In this document: positions 9,708-19,436 of the stretch, one piece after another | Layout: every line of letters begins with the position of its first letter | Numbering within the stretch: position 1 is the first letter of the stretch | From: a virus | Length of the DNA: 21,008 nucleotides | IMG/VR virus record: IMGVR_UViG_3300042400_000350 | Span: 1-21,008 of that record | Strand: one strand, 5' to 3' | Made by a program: the position numbers and the translations under genes | The notes under the pieces: generated by a model | The model's input: the letters and a program-made list of their open reading frames with translations, nothing else | Told to the model about the DNA's origin: nothing | The model's database searches: none

Positions 9708-11047
9708 TGATATTATCCATACTACAAGAACTTGAAGCAAATCCATCAAGAAATTTCAAAATAGAATTGTTAACCAAACACAAAGATAATGAACTTCTAA
9801 AAGAAGTTTGTCGGTTAGCCAATGACCCAATGACCCAGTTCTATCAAAGAAAGATTCCAAAGTATGAACCAAATACTTTTCTTCTGAGTGATAATAATCT
9901 AGATTGGGCTATTCAAGAATTGGTTGAACAATTAGCTAGTCGTAAAATTACTGGTAACAATGCTATTACACATTTAGAGTTTATTCTTGAAAATGTAACA
10001 GCAAATAATGCCAAGGTCATTGAACGTATCATCCAGAAAGACTTGAAGTGTGGTGTTAATACTTCAACAATTAATAAAGTCTGGCCAAATCTAATACCTG
10101 AGTTTCCTTGTATGTTATGTTCTCCTTTCGAGCAGAAATTAGTCGATAAGATTGTATTCCCAGCTATCGTCCAGGCAAAAATGGATGGTATGCGCTTTGC
10201 CGCTATTGTTAAATTTGATAGGGATTTAAAAGGTACAGTTGAATTCCGTTCTAGGAATGGTAAAGAGATTTCATTACTAGGCAGTCTGGAAGAAGAATTC
10301 ATTGAATTGGCTTATGGCAAAGACCTTGTGTTTGATGGTGAACTTCTGGTATATGATACAGTTGAAACAGATTCAAACGGCAAGATATGCGACCGCCAAA
10401 CTGGTAATGGTATTCTTAACAAAGCAGTAAAAGGAACTATATCAAAAGAAGAAGCAGATAGAGTATTTGCTACTCTTTGGGATCAAATTCCATATGAAGA
10501 TTTTATTGCTGGTAAATGTGACCAACCTTACAGTTATAGATTTAGGCAATTAAAAAATCTTATTTATAAATTAAGTAAATTTAAATTAAGGAAACTTGAT
10601 TTAGTAGAAACTTTTGAGGTAGATTCTTTAGAACAAACTCAAAGAATATTCCAAAACTATCTTGATGACGGTGATGAAGGTATCATTCTTAAAGATCCAA
10701 ACTCATTATGGGAAAACAAAAGATCCAAAGGACAAATCAAGTTTAAAGCAATTAATGATACTTCACTACAAGTCATTAGCGTTATAGGTGGAACTGGTAA
10801 ATATGTTGATATGATTGGTTCACTTTATTGTGAATCAGCCGATGGCATAATAAAAGTATATATTGGATCAGGGTTTTCAGATGAACAAAGAAATATGCCC
10901 CCATCAGAATATTATGGTAAAATTGTATCTATCAAATACAATGCTAAAATACAGGCAAAAACTGGAGAGTGGTCTTTATTTTTGCCTGTATTTGAATATG
11001 TAAGAACTGATCAGGATTTAGCGGACTCTTTTGATAGAATTCTTTAA
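9707..11047 (+). CDS. ATP-dependent DNA ligase, T4 gp30-like
   Basis: Seals nicks in duplex DNA during replication and repair. 446 aa. An N-terminal helical domain precedes motif I AKMDG (adenylated Lys158), motif III 'FDGELLVY' (209-216), motif IV 'DEGIILKDP' (323-331), motif V 'IKFKA' (344-348), then an OB-fold. The last 45 codons (402-446) have a diverged second copy at 12012-12149, and the final 30 nt overlap the antisense homing-endonuclease gene. The present C-terminus was therefore probably acquired with that gene. All catalytic motifs are intact, so activity is expected. Confidence 0.92.
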   Translation: MILSILQELEANPSRNFKIELLTKHKDNELLKEVCRLANDPMTQFYQRKIPKYEPNTFLLSDNNLDWAIQELVEQLASRKITGNNAITHLEFILENVTANNAKVIERIIQKDLKCGVNTSTINKVWPNLIPEFPCMLCSPFEQKLVDKIVFPAIVQAKMDGMRFAAIVKFDRDLKGTVEFRSRNGKEISLLGSLEEEFIELAYGKDLVFDGELLVYDTVETDSNGKICDRQTGNGILNKAVKGTISKEEADRVFATLWDQIPYEDFIAGKCDQPYSYRFRQLKNLIYKLSKFKLRKLDLVETFEVDSLEQTQRIFQNYLDDGDEGIILKDPNSLWENKRSKGQIKFKAINDTSLQVISVIGGTGKYVDMIGSLYCESADGIIKVYIGSGFSDEQRNMPPSEYYGKIVSIKYNAKIQAKTGEWSLFLPVFEYVRTDQDLADSFDRIL

Positions 11048-11866
11048 TTCTATCATTTCTAAACCAAAGTTTTTATTACCATATTTATCTGGAAGTCTGC
11101 CTTTTATAAATCCTATTGGAACAATATCTTCTATGGAAACATAAATTTCAATTTCGTAATTATGATATCTTAATTTTCCTTTAGGTCCGGATCCTATACT
11201 TGTTTTACCTTTTGTAGATTTACTTATATTTTCACAATGTTGTTTTGTTCTGAGTGGTTTGGATTTACCTTTATTACCAATAGAAAGTTTTTCTTTTTGT
11301 TCTTTAGTAGTCCTACCACTAGACCAAGCAGGGTTGTAAGTTAAAAATTCTAATCGTTCTTCTTGCGATAAAAAGTATATTTTAATTATATGTTTATAAT
11401 TTACCCAAAATCTACCTTTATTGCCAGTTGGATATTTTATGTTAGGTATATTTAATGTTAAACACATTTGATTTATGATATCATTGACTAAGGCATTTGC
11501 TCCAGCATTTCCAGGCAATTTAGATGGTTTGAATAAACTTTTACCATATGCTCCTGGATTAGAACGATTTAACATTTTATTATTTTTACATGCTTTAGTT
11601 TTTATTAGAAAAGTATTTTCCCATTCTCGGCAACTTTCTATGTTATCAAATATCTTTGTTATTTTAATAATATCAGGTTCGCCATGAGTTTTTCTAAATT
11701 CTTTTACATATTTGGAACTTGTAAAGTATGATTTCCATAATTTTGAAGGGTGGCATTTTTTACTATAACTTGATCCATAATAAGATATGCCAAATGCTTT
11801 CCATTTAATATAATATGTATATGGGGTTCTTCCTTCTAATGAAGTATAAATAGTTGTGCTGGTCAT
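11018..11866 (-). CDS. GIY-YIG-like homing endonuclease inserted at the ligase 3' end
   Basis: The only minus-strand gene in the window. 282 aa. The N-terminal domain has a GIY-YIG-like pattern: YYI (18-20) ... YYGS (29-32), then 'KCHPSKLWKSYFTSSKYV', a variant seen in many phage endonucleases, with Glu81/Glu83 in 'CREWENTF' as likely catalytic acid. The C-terminal part has a NUMOD3-like Gly/Lys-rich DNA-binding repeat (SIGNKGKSKPL, STKGKTSIGSGPKGK). A strong AGGAG precedes its ATG. Its last ~9 codons are antisense to the ligase C-terminus. A TATAAATA late-type box and a hairpin lie upstream. It probably cleaves ligase genes lacking the insert and spreads by repair. Confidence 0.82.
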   Translation of the reverse strand: MTSTTIYTSLEGRTPYTYYIKWKAFGISYYGSSYSKKCHPSKLWKSYFTSSKYVKEFRKTHGEPDIIKITKIFDNIESCREWENTFLIKTKACKNNKMLNRSNPGAYGKSLFKPSKLPGNAGANALVNDIINQMCLTLNIPNIKYPTGNKGRFWVNYKHIIKIYFLSQEERLEFLTYNPAWSSGRTTKEQKEKLSIGNKGKSKPLRTKQHCENISKSTKGKTSIGSGPKGKLRYHNYEIEIYVSIEDIVPIGFIKGRLPDKYGNKNFGLEMIELKNSIKRVR

Positions 11867-11899: not shown

Positions 11900-11937
11900 G
11901 CCAATAGATGTTGACGCATCGTGATTGGCATTTTTTT
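11900..11937 (+). terminator. Intrinsic terminator (plus strand) between the homing gene and the ligase relic
   Basis: GCCAAT (11900-11905) pairs with ATTGGC (11924-11929). An inner GATG/CATC stem is topped by TTGACG, and TTTTTTT follows at 11931-11937. It would stop ligase-operon transcripts that run antisense through the homing gene. The same hairpin lies in the minus-strand leader of the homing gene, where no U-tract follows. Confidence 0.75.
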
Positions 11938-11942
11938 ATTGC

Positions 11943-11971
11943 TTGACATATAACATTATTAGTTATATGAT
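11943..11971 (+). promoter_or_regulatory. Canonical sigma-70 promoter inside the insertion scar
   Basis: TTGACA 11943-11948 and TATGAT 11966-11971, with a 17-nt spacer. It differs from the phage's own TTTACT type and sits just after the terminator. It would transcribe the ligase relic and the downstream nuclease gene. Activity is inferred from the match only. Confidence 0.55.
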
Positions 11972-11972
11972 G

Positions 11973-11980
11973 TATTTATA
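11973..11980 (-). promoter_or_regulatory. Possible T4-type late promoter box for the homing gene
   Basis: On the minus strand this reads TATAAATA, the T4 late-promoter consensus, ~107 nt upstream of the homing-endonuclease ATG. Late expression with a structured leader is known for T4 homing genes. The motif is short and AT-only, so chance occurrence is a real possibility in this DNA. Confidence 0.35.
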
Positions 11981-12008
11981 TAAATTGAAAATTCACTATA
12001 GAATTTCT

Positions 12009-12149
12009 AATTATTATGGCAAAATCATATCTGTAAAGTATAATGCTAGAATTAAAAATACAAATGGTGAAGAGTCATTATTCCTTCCTGTTTTCCTTGA
12101 AGTAAGAAACGATAAAGAAGTTGCTGATACATCAAAAAAGATAAAATAA
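12009..12149 (+). pseudogene. Displaced remnant of the ligase C-terminus
   Basis: Codons from 12012 to the TAA at 12147-12149 align without gaps to the last 45 codons plus stop of the ligase (10910-11047), with 26 of 45 residues identical by my count, including YYGKI, KYNA and SLFLPVF. No ligase core precedes it and it has no good start of its own. This is the original 3' end of the ligase gene, cut off by insertion of the homing-endonuclease module, which brought a replacement tail. Confidence 0.85.
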
Positions 12150-15742: not shown

Positions 15743-16638
15743 TGATATTACTAGATTACAATCAAGTATGTTTATCGGCAATATTACCATTCTCAAAAGA
15801 CTTAAAGAAATCTGAAGATGAAGTACGAAATCTAGTTAGACATATTATATTATCAAATATTCTTACCTATAAGAAAAAGTATGGTAGTGAATATGGTAAC
15901 GTTATTATATGTTGTGATGGTAGAGAGTACTGGAGAAAAGAAGTATTCCCCTATTACAAAGGTTCAAGGAAAAAGAGTAGAGATAATTCAGACTTAAACT
16001 GGAAACTAATATTTGATGTGTTATCAGAAATGCGTCAGGATTTAATAGATTACTTTCCATATAAAGTGATCAATATCAATAGAGCTGAAGCAGATGATAT
16101 CATTGCTATATTGGCAGAATGGAGTCAAAACAATGAATTGATTCAAGAAGGAATGTTTGAAGAACCACAAAAGATAATGATAATTTCTAGTGATGGGGAT
16201 TTTCTTCAGCTTCAGAAATATAATAATGTATCTCAATGGTCACCTAATACCAAAAAGTTACTTAAGATGAGCCATAGAGACCTCCATGAAAAATATATTA
16301 CACATATTGTAAAAGGAGATTCAGGCGACGGTATTCCCAACATTATGACTAAAGATGAAGTATTAGTAACAGAAGGAATTCGTCAAAATACTGTATCAGC
16401 AAAACGATTAGCTGAATTTATTGAAGTAGGAAAGTCTGCTTGTAAAACCGATGATGAGATTAGAAACTGGGATAGAAATGAAAGGTTAATTTCTTTTGAA
16501 TGTATACCATCTGATATACAAGAAGAAATTGTTACTACATATAATGCAACCACACCCAAACGTGACTCAATGAAACTGATGAATTATTTGATGAAACACA
16601 GGTGCAATTTATTACTATCAGAATTAGGTAACTTTTAA
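15742..16638 (+). CDS. T4 RNase H-like 5'-3' exonuclease (FEN family)
   Basis: Removes RNA primers and flaps on the lagging strand. GGGAG at 15730-15734 places the start at 15742 rather than 15736. 298 aa, close to T4 Rnh. Acidic metal-binding motifs are present in order: 'LLDYNQ' near the N-terminus, 'CCDGREYWRKEVFPYYKGSR', 'NRAEADDIIAILAE', 'MIISSDGDFLQLQKY' with 'QWSP', and 'KGDSGDGIPN'. These line up closely with T4 Rnh. Works with primase and ligase encoded nearby. Confidence 0.9.
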   Translation: MILLDYNQVCLSAILPFSKDLKKSEDEVRNLVRHIILSNILTYKKKYGSEYGNVIICCDGREYWRKEVFPYYKGSRKKSRDNSDLNWKLIFDVLSEMRQDLIDYFPYKVININRAEADDIIAILAEWSQNNELIQEGMFEEPQKIMIISSDGDFLQLQKYNNVSQWSPNTKKLLKMSHRDLHEKYITHIVKGDSGDGIPNIMTKDEVLVTEGIRQNTVSAKRLAEFIEVGKSACKTDDEIRNWDRNERLISFECIPSDIQEEIVTTYNATTPKRDSMKLMNYLMKHRCNLLLSELGNF

Positions 16639-17090
16639 TGACAAAATTTGTAACAGAAATGTTAGATGAGATTAACAACGACCCATCTAAAATTGTGAAC
16701 TATAAAGAAAGCAATGCTTTAAAATTGGTATTTGAGTATGCCTTTAATCCAGCAAATAAGTTTGTATTACCCGATGGTGTTCCACCTTATAAAGAAGATG
16801 CAGCACCATTAGGTATGAGTCCTGCTAATTTATTAATGGAACTCAAAAGATTCTATGTATTTTGTAGAGCAGATTTAAATGATGTAAGAAGAGAAACTTT
16901 GTTTGTTCAGTTGCTAGAAAATACTCACCCATCAGAAGCAAAGGTATTGTTAGCAATTAAAGATCAAACATTACATAAAATGTATAAGAAAATTACTCAT
17001 AAATTGGTATATGAGGCAGGTTTGGTTACAGTAGCACCAGAGGTTAAGCAATCAAAAAAGTCAAAAGCATTGGTTGGAGCCGACCTTTAG
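16638..17090 (+). CDS. Conserved T4-like phage protein (DUF6433-like, 150 aa)
   Basis: 150 aa. The features 'LKLVFEYAFNPANKFVLP', 'GVPPYKEDAAPLGMSP', 'LKRFYVFCRADL' and 'HPSEAKVLLAIKDQ' match a conserved protein next to RNase H in many marine T4-like phages, which I associate with DUF6433. Function unknown; the location beside rnh and dsbA is the region where T4 carries gp33 and gp59, but I see no clear similarity to either. TAATG overlap with RNase H. Confidence 0.78.
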   Translation: MTKFVTEMLDEINNDPSKIVNYKESNALKLVFEYAFNPANKFVLPDGVPPYKEDAAPLGMSPANLLMELKRFYVFCRADLNDVRRETLFVQLLENTHPSEAKVLLAIKDQTLHKMYKKITHKLVYEAGLVTVAPEVKQSKKSKALVGADL

Positions 17091-17129
17091 TTCCAATCAA
17101 AAAAGAATTAAGTTTTTTTAAAAAAGTGC

Positions 17130-17158
17130 TTTACTTTACCAAAAAAATACTTTATAAT
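17130..17158 (+). promoter_or_regulatory. Phage promoter 7 (TTTACT-N17-TATAAT)
   Basis: TTTACT 17130-17135, TATAAT 17153-17158, spacer 17. The -10 merges with an ATG at 17157, which therefore cannot start the next gene from this promoter. Transcription from here should include groES and the structured RNA, since no promoter of this type precedes the tRNA-like element. Confidence 0.85.
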
Positions 17159-17186
17159 GAGTTATAGTTTTGAAAAAGTGATGAAA

Positions 17187-17711
17187 ATGAAAAAAGTTAT
17201 AAAAGCAGTAAATTTCGCAGCATTGGCTCACAAAGACCAAAAGAGGAAGGATATTGAACAAACTCCTTATATCAATCACCCTCTTAAAGTTGCTGATATA
17301 TTGATTGATAATGGAATTGAAGATGAAGATACTATTGTTGCGGCAATTCTTCACGATGTTATTGAAGACACTGATTTTTGCTATGATGATATAGTTTGTG
17401 ACTTTAGTAAAGAAATTGCTGATTTAGTATTAGAAGTAAGTGACGATAAAAGTCTTCCAAAAGATGAACGAAAAAGGCTTCAAATTGAACATGCTCCTTT
17501 TCTCAGTGATAAAGCAAAGTTGATTAAGATTGCTGATAAGATTGCTAATTTAGAAGATATATTGTTCAGTGCTCCAGTAGGTTGGACTAAAGAAAGAAGA
17601 ATCAAATATTTTGAATGGGCAAATGAAGTTGTAAAAGGTGCAAAAGGCATTAATAAAATGCTTGATGATGATTTTGATAAAATATATAGTTTTAAGTTGA
17701 AGAGGTTTTAA
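17187..17711 (+). CDS. HD-domain (p)ppGpp hydrolase-like protein (MESH1/SpoT type)
   Basis: ATG 17187 gives the typical family start (MKKVIKAVNFAALAHKDQKRK shown in part: MKKVIKAVNFAALAHK); ATG 17157 overlaps the -10 box. 174 aa, the size of single-domain small alarmone hydrolases. HD-family residues are present: His15, 'YINHP' (His31), 'ILHDVIEDT' (His56, Asp57, Glu60, Asp61) and 'KIADKIANLEDI' with the metal-binding Asp. Likely hydrolyses (p)ppGpp or a related nucleotide, which could blunt the host stringent response during infection. Substrate is inferred from family; no synthetase domain is present. Coupled to groES by TAATG. Confidence 0.85.
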   Translation: MKKVIKAVNFAALAHKDQKRKDIEQTPYINHPLKVADILIDNGIEDEDTIVAAILHDVIEDTDFCYDDIVCDFSKEIADLVLEVSDDKSLPKDERKRLQIEHAPFLSDKAKLIKIADKIANLEDILFSAPVGWTKERRIKYFEWANEVVKGAKGINKMLDDDFDKIYSFKLKRF

Positions 17712-17980
17712 TGAGTTTTAAACCGATAAGAAAGAATGTTTTAATAGCACAGATTAAAAGAAAGACAACCACTGAATCAGGTATTATTATTGAGGGTGTA
17801 AAAAGTATAGCTGATACTGAAACGGCAAGAGTGTTAGGTATTGGAGATGAAGTAACAATGGTTCAGGTAGGCGATGAATTATTGGTAGATTGGAAAACTG
17901 TTGGGATTATTACCATTGATGGCGAGCAAAGATGTGTAATAAGCGAAGACAATATTATTGCAGTTATAGATAGATCATAA
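17711..17980 (+). CDS. GroES-like co-chaperonin (T4 gp31 role)
   Basis: 89 aa, the size of a GroES subunit. It starts 'FKPIRKNVLIAQI' and has the mobile-loop region 'KTTTESGIIIEG', then 'ARVLGIGDEV...QVGDELLVDWK' and ends 'CVISEDNIIAVI', the GroES beta-barrel order. It would cap host GroEL, as T4 gp31 does for major capsid protein folding. Last protein gene before the tRNA-like element; ends 10 nt upstream of it. Confidence 0.87.
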   Translation: MSFKPIRKNVLIAQIKRKTTTESGIIIEGVKSIADTETARVLGIGDEVTMVQVGDELLVDWKTVGIITIDGEQRCVISEDNIIAVIDRS

Positions 17981-17990
17981 GCAAAAATTT

Positions 17991-18065
17991 TCTCTTGTAG
18001 CTCAGTTGGTTAGAGTAGTCGGACGGTATACACCGAGGTCGCAGGTTCGAATCCTGCCAAGATAA
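17991..18065 (+). tRNA. tRNA-like element with abnormal anticodon arm
   Basis: Acceptor TCTCTTG (17991-17997) pairs with CAAGATA (18058-18064) with one C/T mismatch. The D-arm is GCTC/GAGT with loop AGTTGGTTA. A perfect T-arm GCAGG/CCTGC carries the loop TTCGAAT (18041-18057). The anticodon arm fails to form 5 bp plus a 7-nt loop: the best stem TCGG/CCGA leaves a 10-nt loop ACGGTATACA (or 8 nt with an A/A pair), with no properly placed U33. No CCA is encoded. It may be a divergent tRNA, a decayed tRNA, or a tRNA-like domain of the large RNA that follows. Isotype cannot be assigned. Confidence 0.55.
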
Positions 18066-18607
18066 ATCTTCAATGCCGAAAGAAGTAGAACCTTAAAGAA
18101 GTTCAAGACGGCACTTTTAAGAATATATTGAGCTGCGGAGCATGACCGCAAGGGCAAGGTAAAATGTGTCGAATCGCAGTGTTAATGCGAATCAGTATAT
18201 TCTTAAAAGTATTTAATAAAACACATTAATCGAGTTTATATAAATTCGCTTACTCGTTAAGAATAGAGGCGACTAAAACTATTCTATAGTGTGTTTTATT
18301 AAAAGTATTTGGGTTGATTGTATCAATTAACCTATGCACACTCTAAGGTCACAGATGGACGATGTTGTGCTAAAATGCTTTTATTGATTGGTTGTGAAGT
18401 TTTTAACCAAAAGTAAACACCACAGTATGGCTTGGGACTGGTAAAATGGTGGGGTAAGAGTCCTTAAATAAGTCAGAAATTTTAAAAAACATATTTGACG
18501 GTTATTCTAGTGCAACTCAACGGCATGGGGGTAATCGGTAGTGCTGACACACTGCGAAAAGTTTATTTGTCAGGATAAACGGATATTAAGTATGTTTTTT
18601 AAAGTTT
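18066..18607 (+). ncRNA. Large multi-domain structured non-coding RNA region
   Basis: No ORF of note is found in ~580 nt between groES/tRNA-like element and 18647. Structure seen by eye: hairpin TGCCG/CGGCA (18074-18113); domain A closed by a perfect 15-bp stem (18113-18127 with 18196-18210) enclosing two hairpins; domain B closed by 14 perfect pairs plus 3 (18212-18228 with 18287-18303) enclosing CGAGT/ACTCG and GAATAG/CTATTC; a 9-bp hairpin (18312-18332); hairpins at 18336-18370 and 18388-18410; a possible H-type pseudoknot (18418-18463); domain E closed by ~20 pairs (18477-18496 with 18588-18607) around hairpins 18538-18555 and 18561-18580. Size, complexity and tRNA-like neighbour recall GOLLD/ROOL-type phage RNAs; identity unproven. 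Confidence 0.72.
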
Positions 18608-18646
18608 TAATAATAAGCGACCAATTTTTATAATACGAGGTAAAAT

Positions 18647-18808
18647 ATGTTTGAAAAAGAGAGATTGTTATTAGAAAGAGAACAGTTATTGGATCAACTT
18701 GAATCATTAAAATTTAATAATGAAATGTGTAATAGAGAATATGTAAGAGAAACAAAACAGTTAGAAATGCACATAAAAGAAACAGAACATGAATTAACAT
18801 TATTTTGA
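18647..18808 (+). CDS. Small coiled-coil protein (53 aa)
   Basis: 53 aa with GAGG 8 nt upstream of ATG. Almost wholly charged helix with Leu heptads (FEKERLLLEREQLLDQLES), so a coiled coil is likely. Glu-rich and soluble, with one Cys. First of three tiny genes after the structured RNA. Unknown function; cotranscribed with the RNA or read from a weak promoter. Confidence 0.6.
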   Translation: MFEKERLLLEREQLLDQLESLKFNNEMCNREYVRETKQLEMHIKETEHELTLF

Positions 18809-18816
18809 GGTAACAT

Positions 18817-18990
18817 ATGCAACATATACAATTTATAACAGTAGCACTTGGGTTATGTGGTTTGATTGGGGTATCTGTTTATACAGTAAACCATGAAGAT
18901 ACAGTTAAAATGGAAATTGCCGCAAAGTCTGGATTAATACAATGTCGTGAAGAATCATTTGTATTATGGAAGAAAGAGTGTAACAAATAA
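18817..18990 (+). CDS. Small single-span membrane protein (57 aa)
   Basis: 57 aa, GAGG upstream. Residues 5-23 are a membrane helix (QFITVALGLCGLIGVSVYT), followed by a short external domain with two Cys ('AAKSGLIQCREESFVLWKKEC') that could form a disulfide. This 'AA.SG..QC......W...C' tail resembles small phage membrane proteins I have seen elsewhere. Function unknown. Confidence 0.62.
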   Translation: MQHIQFITVALGLCGLIGVSVYTVNHEDTVKMEIAAKSGLIQCREESFVLWKKECNK

Positions 18991-19000
18991 GAGAAATAAT

Positions 19001-19120
19001 ATGGCAGGAAAAGGTAGTAAACCAAGACCATTCTCAGATAGAAAAAAGTTTGATGAAAACTGGGATATGATATTTGGCAAGAAGAAAGAACCAGAAAAAG
19101 AACCAAATGATAAAAAATAA
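19001..19120 (+). CDS. Tiny conserved phage protein, GKGSKPRP type (39 aa)
   Basis: 39 aa starting MAGKGSKPRPFSDRKKFDEN, then WDMIFGKK. The 'GKGSKPRP....R..Y..NWD.IFGKK' pattern is, from memory, a widely distributed mini-protein of tailed phages, which strongly supports a real gene despite its length. GAGAAA precedes the ATG. The stop lies 3 bp before the next promoter. Function unknown. Confidence 0.72.
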   Translation: MAGKGSKPRPFSDRKKFDENWDMIFGKKKEPEKEPNDKK

Positions 19121-19123
19121 TAC

Positions 19124-19152
19124 TTTACTTTTATTATTACATATATTATAAT
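19124..19152 (+). promoter_or_regulatory. Phage promoter 8 (TTTACT-N17-TATAAT)
   Basis: TTTACT 19124-19129, TATAAT 19147-19152, spacer 17; 32-nt leader with TTTGATAAAGTGAG before ATG 19185, nearly the same as the leader of promoter 2. Confidence 0.85.
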
Positions 19153-19184
19153 AAGTCTTAATTTTGATAAAGTGAGTTTATATT

Positions 19185-19436
19185 ATGAAAACAATAACAA
19201 TTGAATTAGAAGATTATAAATGGTTGGCTATTTTAGCTCCAGATTCTAAATTGAATAAAAAAGATTTATGTCAATTGTTAAAAATCACTGAAGGAGGATT
19301 AAGAGATAGAATAAAATCTGGTACTTTCCCTAAAAATACACATACCAGAGATATTGGTAAACATAAAAATACTCTTCAATGGACTGCTCAAGTAGTTCGT
19401 GAAGCAATCAAACCATTTATTAATCAACCAAAATAG
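19185..19436 (+). CDS. Small helix-turn-helix protein (83 aa)
   Basis: 83 aa. Residues ~22-60 (LNKKDLCQLLKITEGGLRDR then IKSGTFPKN) look like an AlpA/MerR-type winged HTH: 'kkdLcqlLkiteggLrdRIksGtFPkn', with the loop 'RDIGKHKNTLQWTAQVV' completing a wing. Such proteins are DNA-binding regulators or excision factors. With its own strong promoter it is a candidate early transcription regulator. DNA binding is inferred from the motif. Confidence 0.7.
   Translation: MKTITIELEDYKWLAILAPDSKLNKKDLCQLLKITEGGLRDRIKSGTFPKNTHTRDIGKHKNTLQWTAQVVREAIKPFINQPK

What the first reader, a model, noticed from the sequence alone, without database searches (positions are those of the whole stretch)
17991..18607. 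Large, elaborately folded non-coding RNA downstream of groES, preceded by a tRNA-like element
About 600 nt lack coding potential but hold three unusually long, perfect or near-perfect closing stems (15, ~17 and ~20 bp) around branched cores, plus several hairpins and a possible pseudoknot. Such perfect long-range pairing does not arise by chance in protein-coding phage DNA that otherwise has almost no gaps. Phages carry giant ornate RNAs (GOLLD, ROOL) near tRNAs, and this could be a divergent member or a new class.
Basis: partly seen in the sequence, partly recalled or inferred. Interest (0 to 1): 0.92.

Follow-up and report, generated by a model that had tools for sequence, protein, structure and literature searches.

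The report
Array of small RNAs among phage tRNAs
What looked like one giant non-coding RNA beside a tRNA in a phage genome is a row of about six separate small folded RNAs that environmental phages shuffle like cassettes within their tRNA gene clusters; they match no catalogued RNA family that was searched, and their job is not known.

Summary
In detail: 17990-18607 is non-coding, starts with a tRNA-like element and folds strongly (z -5.4; 0 of 20 shuffles as good). One large ornate RNA it is not. In related IMG/VR contigs the same pieces occur singly, in other orders, among tRNA genes. The modules are pseudoknot H0, long-stem RNAs E1, E2, E3, E4, and pseudoknot E3b. The four long-stem modules keep pairs through changes on both sides; H0 support is moderate. 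Rfam 15 recognises only the tRNA. E3b belongs to a wider family whose loop-to-tail pseudoknot passed a test on sequences found by a motif that did not require it; remote members sit in tRNA clusters of other phages. Closest precedent: T4 rnaC and rnaD, stable RNAs in the T4 tRNA cluster, without detectable sequence likeness. Best reading: a co-transcribed array of tRNA-sized stable RNAs. Processing and stability are inferred; a role in trans as decoy or mimic is a weaker inference, and cis processing or ribozyme activity is the main rival. New families of a known kind.

The parts
17990..18066 (+). tRNA-like element with D arm and T arm; anticodon arm abnormal (either a loop of more than 7 nt or a 4-bp mini hairpin CGGT-ATAC-ACCG)
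   Evidence: ARAGORN tRNA-???; Rfam tRNA 42.4 bits; fold; found only in the window and its twin contig among the loci searched
18067..18113 (+). H0, small pseudoknot: CTTC/GAAG helix, TGCCG/CGGCA helix, hairpin between
   Evidence: 12-row alignment; first helix 51 of 60 cells paired, 77 of 5000 shuffles as high; second helix nearly invariant, no test
18113..18210 (+). E1, cloverleaf: 19-bp stem and three arms (18134-18150, 18152-18170, 18174-18190)
   Evidence: z -5.8; 6 pairs with changes on both sides in 5 sequences
18212..18303 (+). E2, 17-bp stem around two hairpins (18231-18256, 18261-18284) whose loops could kiss (TCGCTT/AGGCGA, by eye); inner structure unresolved
   Evidence: z -3.9; 3 of 34 pairs with double changes, one in the 17-bp stem and two at its outer flank
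18305..18378 (+). E3, short stem (18305-18310/18373-18378) with two hairpins
   Evidence: z -2.2; 24 pairs kept in 8 sequences, 1 with double changes
18383..18475 (+). E3b, pseudoknot RNA: CACC 18418-18421 with GGTG 18448-18451, TAAGAGT loop 18455-18461, loop GGCTT 18429-18433 with tail AAGTC 18470-18474
18483..18601 (+). E4, 16-bp stem around three arms
   Evidence: z -6.0; 3 of 45 pairs with double changes in 5 sequences
18609..18627 (+). Probable relic of the 3' end of module X11 (AATAAGCGACCAATTT)
   Evidence: by eye against L058:1841-1899

Best explanation
17990-18607 is part of a phage tRNA cluster made of separately inherited small structured RNAs, not one large RNA. Shown by comparison: the modules are non-coding, their pairing is kept by selection, they lie among tRNA genes on the same strand, and they are gained, lost and reordered as units between phages. 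Inferred: they are transcribed with the tRNAs, cut free by tRNA-processing enzymes and by cutting of the long AU-rich duplexes, and accumulate as stable RNAs, as T4 rnaC and rnaD do. Inferred further and weaker (about 0.3): they act in trans as mimics or decoys that occupy a host enzyme or an anti-phage factor that handles tRNA or antitoxin RNA. Some have tRNA outlines: E1 is a cloverleaf, X6 of relatives is a cloverleaf with an ordinary T arm, and tRNA X3 lacks its anticodon loop in four distinct sequences.
For: Modules occur singly and in different orders among tRNAs. All 13 contigs other than the window's twin that hold E2 carry ARAGORN tRNAs. Pairing kept: E1 97.5% of cells, 6 double-change pairs, 0 of 500 shuffles; E3, E4, E2. 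E3b/X1 pseudoknot: 0 of 5000 permutations, 5 of 5040 after collapsing to 7 loop types; new sequences 2 of 5040, controls in open frames 1923 of 2000. Conserved G-U pairs in E4 in 5 of 5 sequences favour RNA of the + strand, the tRNA strand. tRNA outlines. Precedent: T4 rnaC and rnaD annotated as small stable RNAs next to tRNA-Arg. Phage RNA decoys exist: pseudo-ToxI (PMC3475682, passages).
Against: No expression data. The E1-E4 alignments hold only 4 to 8 distinct, closely related sequences, and for E1 the number of further pair types is no higher than in shuffles (251 of 500). H0 evidence is moderate. T4 rnaC and rnaD show no sequence likeness to the modules, and T4 rnaD itself does not fold better than shuffles (z -0.8). 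No target of any decoy was identified. Several X3 forms could simply be decaying tRNAs.
Confidence: 0.5

Rival explanations
1. Cis-acting processing modules: the long stems and pseudoknots are cutting or protecting signals, or small self-cleaving ribozymes, that divide the polycistronic tRNA transcript; the modules have no function of their own once cut.
For: Modules sit tightly between tRNAs; several E3b copies end within about 10 nt of a tRNA start (L072, L077). H0 follows directly on tRNA X3 in several loci, much as theta ribozymes lie at tRNA ends in other phages (PMC10879173, passages). Conserved A-rich joining stretches in E3b would suit a catalytic core.
Against: No match to any Rfam ribozyme. 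Folding is more elaborate and more varied than a spacer signal needs; different modules serve the same position in different phages.
Confidence: 0.3
2. Selfish or neutral cassettes: inverted-repeat DNA elements that spread through tRNA clusters by recombination at shared AT-rich borders, helped by homing endonucleases, without benefit to the phage.
For: Shared letters at module borders, a second partial E1-like copy in L062 and L063, a homing-endonuclease-like ORF inside the L003 array (family label recalled), and presence in records without the window's RNase H (7 of 14, fragments).
Against: Pairs are kept through G-U as well as Watson-Crick changes and loops are conserved, which points to selection on RNA; the pseudoknot family E3b/X1 has no long inverted repeat.
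Confidence: 0.13
3. One large ornate RNA of the GOLLD or ROOL kind, or a distant member, spanning 17991-18607.
For: Position near a tRNA in a phage, as reported for GOLLD and ROOL (PMC12286853, passages); strong folding of the whole stretch.
Against: No Rfam match to either at E up to 10; the parts are inherited separately and reordered.
Confidence: 0.04

Closest known systems
Phage T4 rnaC and rnaD (species 1 and species 2 RNA)
   Same: Small stable RNAs of 139 and 119 nt in the tRNA cluster of a T4-like phage, next to a tRNA, with a GIY-YIG homing endonuclease gene in the cluster; rnaC has a tRNA-like T arm (read) and folds strongly (z -4.6)
   Different: No module profile and not the E3b motif matches the T4 region at E up to 1; here there are more modules, and they are reordered between phages
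GOLLD and ROOL RNAs
   Same: Phage-encoded structured RNAs near tRNA islands, function unknown (PMC12286853, passages)
   Different: Many GOLLD exceed 800 nt as one molecule; here separate modules of about 45-125 nt; no Rfam match
Theta ribozymes (HDV-like, tRNA-associated)
   Same: Small pseudoknotted RNA next to phage tRNAs (PMC10879173, passages); H0 sits directly behind tRNA X3 in several loci
   Different: H0 as drawn has A, not the catalytic C, first after the last hairpin, and no hairpin inside the first loop (the second feature recalled)
Type III antitoxin RNA and phage pseudo-ToxI
   Same: Phage pseudoknot RNA that can act as a decoy against a host defence toxin (PMC3475682, passages); E3b copies can be in tandem
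   Different: Repeats of 36 nt there, about 75-100 nt here; no toxin partner known; sequence relation not tested

Membership tests
GOLLD / ROOL | Match to the Rfam covariance models | tested here: not met
   No match at the gathering cut-off in the window, none at E up to 10 in 17900-18700
GOLLD / ROOL | One long RNA with a conserved overall architecture | tested here: not met
   Modules occur singly and reordered in relatives
tRNA (17990-18066) | Match to the Rfam tRNA model | tested here: met
   42.4 bits, cut-off 29
tRNA (17990-18066) | Ordinary 7-nt anticodon loop with a readable anticodon | tested here: not met
   ARAGORN: type undetermined, 4-base anticodon; alternative mini hairpin in the fold
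tRNA (E1, X6) | Match to the Rfam tRNA model | tested here: not met
   No tRNA match over E1 in the window or over X6 in L003, L054, although both fold as cloverleaves
T4 rnaC/rnaD-like stable RNAs | Position in the tRNA cluster of a T4-like phage, about 100-140 nt, structured | tested here: met
   Window position and module sizes; T4 record; RNase H profile
T4 rnaC/rnaD-like stable RNAs | Sequence homology to rnaC or rnaD | tested here: not met
   Ten module profiles against the T4 region, none at E up to 1
T4 rnaC/rnaD-like stable RNAs | Accumulates as a stable RNA | not testable with these tools
   No expression data
Theta (HDV-like) ribozyme, for H0 | Cleavage site within 5 nt of a tRNA | tested here: inconclusive
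   H0 begins at the tRNA-like end in several loci, 7 nt or so behind it in others; no cleavage known
Theta (HDV-like) ribozyme, for H0 | Catalytic C at the first position of junction J4/2 | tested here: inconclusive
   A in the rows as I drew the hairpin; the preceding paired base is C in most, so the register is open
tmRNA, group I/II introns, riboswitches | Match to Rfam models; ARAGORN tmRNA | tested here: not met
Type III toxin-antitoxin RNA | Short pseudoknot repeats bound by a partner toxin | not tested
   No toxin gene was searched for; Rfam gave no such match in the window

The most novel reading that the evidence does not exclude
E3b/X1 is a new, widespread class of phage RNA with a T-loop-like hairpin and a loop-to-tail pseudoknot that works in its own right, either as a new self-cleaving ribozyme that matures tRNA arrays or as a mimic that blocks tRNA-targeting anti-phage enzymes, and phage tRNA clusters are trading posts for a whole set of such RNAs.
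Probability: 0.2. Interest if true: 0.9.

Novelty: new variant of a known kind. Interest (0 to 1): 0.6.

Why it matters
It shows that some phage tRNA clusters are modular collections of tRNAs plus many uncatalogued structured RNAs that appear in unlike phage backgrounds. It gives alignable families (E1, E2, E3, E3b/X1, E4, H0, X6, X11) that can be made, probed and deleted, and it bears on the open question of what the extra stable RNAs of T4 (rnaC, rnaD) do.

Tried and rejected
Rejected readings: one giant RNA; GOLLD/ROOL; tmRNA; introns; theta ribozyme for H0 not excluded but not supported.

Searches that led nowhere: BLAST against 50,697 phage records of E2, E3b, X11, E1 and E4 gave only short chance-level pieces, none covering 80% of the query; three E3b/X1 relatives gave no match at E up to 1; the whole stretch matched 1850 records, none over 80% of it, and the 20 listed rows are tRNA matches. 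X10, E3 and H0 were not searched there alone. Exact-pattern scans of 84,980 species genomes gave 0 for E2 and 0 for E3b. A terminator-like site was found once (17072, outside the array; 0.9 expected) and 15 promoter-like sites in 16600-19200 against 13.0 expected. ON615601, fetched as the closest RNase H relative, shows no annotated tRNA in the 10 kb shown.

Dropped rows: L061 (E1 pattern, no tRNA; judged chance), L060 (H0 pattern, doubtful); 9 of 24 new matches of the loose E3b motif, L064, L067, L068, L074, L076, L081, L084, L086, L087, which have no tRNA and lie in stop-free frames of 217-708 aa, while the 15 kept lie in frames of 0-135 aa. The 9 were used as controls.

Weak points of the tests: the automatic choice of inner stems failed for the window, L055 and L059 rows, so loops were delimited by hand. 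There the L055 and the second L003 rows find their best helix in another register; they were counted. In one search five type-1 rows score higher with an alternative helix GGGAC/GTCCC than with GGCAT/ATGTC, so their pseudoknot is ambiguous. RNAalifold missed the E3b inner stem and pseudoknot, since MAFFT misaligns them, and in H0 it shows only the second helix, without covariation. H0 strands were registered by hand.

Literature: searches of open-access PubMed Central showed no description of these modules in their listings; two of them returned nothing. Passages were read in PMC10879173, PMC2864571, PMC12286853 and PMC3475682; no paper was read whole.

Full report
Setting. The window is a fragment of a T4-like phage: its RNase H (Pfam 5_3_exonuc_N and T4 RNase H C-terminal domain) is at best 37.6-41.9% identical to phage proteins in the 20 rows listed, mostly of cyanophages, Methylophilales and Sinorhizobium phages. 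17990-18607 lies between a groES-like gene and a small gene at 18647. No ORF of at least 60 aa overlaps it.

Observation. The stretch folds far better than shuffles. The signal sits in four long-stem units, E1, E2, E3 and E4; H0, E3b and the tRNA-like element are unremarkable as nested folds. Rfam 15 sees only the tRNA.

Relatives. The groES protein found two contigs: one identical to the window over the 1300 bases compared, and L003, 89% identical in groES. In L003 the stretch after groES is about 1.6 kb and holds X1, two E3b copies, tRNA-Pro, tRNA-Thr, the degenerate tRNA X3, a homing-endonuclease-like ORF on the other strand, an H0 relative, two further long-stem elements (X5, X6), E2 and tRNA-Gly. 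This breaks the idea of a single RNA. A pattern for the E2 core gave 14 stretches on 14 IMG/VR contigs, one of them the window's twin; each of the 13 others has at least one ARAGORN tRNA. Mapping the modules shows free reassortment: H0-E1-E3-X6-E2-tRNA in L054, E1-E2-E3-E4 in L050 and L051, and E1 with X11 but no E2, E3 or E4 hit in L062 and L063. The window's RNase H was found in 7 of 14 such records. The other 7 may be fragments that miss it, but together with the different ORFs of L050 and L051 this suggests that cassettes cross between phage backgrounds.

Covariation. E1, 5 distinct sequences and a structure that I drew: 97.5% of cells paired, 6 pairs with changes on both sides, 0 of 500 shuffles as high; 32.5-44.4% of cells paired when partners are slid; further pair types not above shuffles (251 of 500). 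The sequences are few and related, so the shuffle counts are not probabilities. E3: 24 pairs, none broken in 8 sequences, 1 with double changes. E4: 3 of 45 pairs with double changes in 5 sequences; four pairs fall in a gap of L052, which has another short hairpin there by eye, and one pair is broken in L051. E2: 3 of 34 pairs with double changes in 4 sequences, one in the 17-bp stem and two at its outer flank, one of which is unpaired in the window; the inner part is nearly invariant and its fold is open. H0: first helix 51 of 60 cells, 77 of 5000 shuffles as high, with a mismatch in several rows; second helix nearly invariant, hence uninformative.

E3b/X1. Sixteen rows of E3b and four of X1 share one architecture: an A-rich lead, CACY paired with GGTG around a variable inner stem, a TAARAGT loop on a 3-bp stem, then a tail that can pair back to the inner loop. 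With hand-set loops, loop-tail pairing over 11 distinct combinations sums to 63 against 48.5 when tails are permuted (0 of 5000 as high); collapsed to 7 loop types, 42 against 32 (5 of 5040). A looser motif, which asks for neither the inner stem nor the T-stem complementarity nor the tail, gave 35 stretches: 11 known, 15 new with tRNAs, 9 new without. The 15 reduce to 7 distinct sequences: the 3-bp T stem is complete in 7 of 7, G-U allowed, and the pseudoknot score is 117 against 91.3 (2 of 5040). The 9 without tRNAs, all in open frames of 217-708 aa, are the control: 0 of 9 complete T stems, 89 against 97 (1923 of 2000). All 22 distinct tRNA-cluster sequences together: 321 against 256.8, 0 of 2000. 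In five type-1 sequences a competing helix scores higher. Three of the 7 new sequences are close to known members; L072 (152-kb contig), L073 (107 kb), L077/L083 and L080 (98 kb) are remote, at best E 1e-4 to the E3b profile. The likeness of TAARAGT to a tRNA T-loop and to an RNase P motif is recalled, not tested.

tRNA resemblance. E1 as drawn is a cloverleaf with three 5-bp arms and 7-nt loops, one arm with a bulge; minimum-energy folding gives the middle arm 4 bp. X6 folds as a cloverleaf with a long extra arm and an ordinary T arm; the T-arm stem changes on both sides in L054. X3 aligns with a tRNA whose arm with anticodon AAA is present in L045, L052, L055 and L056, but lacks nine bases there in four distinct sequences. 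X11 ends in GACGACCA or AGCGACCA, with a helix from a loop to that end. The arrays thus hold a graded set from tRNAs to tRNA-shaped RNAs to pseudoknots. That they descend from tRNAs is inference; decay of tRNAs is possible for X3.

Mechanism. Shown: separate units, selection on pairing, the tRNA strand, tRNA neighbourhood, presence in different phages. Inferred: co-transcription, release by tRNA-processing enzymes and duplex cutting, stability. The T4 record is the closest precedent: rnaC and rnaD, labelled 'small, stable RNA', next to tRNA-Arg, with a GIY-YIG homing endonuclease in the cluster. T4 rnaC folds strongly (z -4.6), rnaD does not (-0.8); the 271-base stretch with both has matches in 762 of 50,697 phage records, 650 over at least 80% of it; Rfam gives no above-threshold family for either. 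None of ten module profiles matches the T4 region, so the relation is one of kind and place, not of sequence. A decoy role would fit compact folds, many variants and rapid turnover, and has a phage precedent in pseudo-ToxI (PMC3475682, passages), but nothing here names a target. Cis processing, including a new ribozyme, remains the main rival.

Novelty. The modules match no Rfam 15 family at its cut-off in any locus scanned, no phage record by BLAST beyond chance pieces for the modules tried, and no species genome by two exact patterns. Extra structured RNAs in phage tRNA clusters are a known kind; these families and the modular array are new as far as these searches reach.

Noticed in passing
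L050:7532-7790 and L050:2634-2778 (- strand): The phage contig that carries E1-E2-E3-E4 also has Rfam matches to permuted tmRNA (71.8 bits) and Polynucleobacter-1 RNA (61.7 bits), which hints at a Polynucleobacter-like host.
   Followed up: no
L003:5789-5850 and relatives (X3): A tRNA that lacks nine bases of the anticodon arm in four distinct sequences but keeps D and T arms.
   Followed up: partly
L003:6545-6646, L047:8698-8800, L059:5066-5228, L056:9499-9592: Further structured modules (X5, X7, X8 and X9, X10) in related tRNA clusters, not in the window.
   Followed up: partly
L003:5835-6380 (- strand): A homing-endonuclease-like ORF (GIY-YIG label recalled) sits inside the L003 RNA array, as segB does in the T4 tRNA cluster.
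   Followed up: no
window:9707-12149: A ligase-like ORF (label recalled) ends at 11047; after a GIY-YIG-like ORF on the other strand (11018-11866) a second stretch at 11925-12149 encodes another ligase-like C-terminal end, like that of L003, as if an insertion had brought its own end.
   Followed up: no
L051:6980-8350: An integrase-like ORF (label recalled) lies near tRNA-Thr and the E1-E4 cassette.
   Followed up: no
L062:1591-1632 and L063:8366-8407: A partial second E1-like copy beside the full E1.
   Followed up: no
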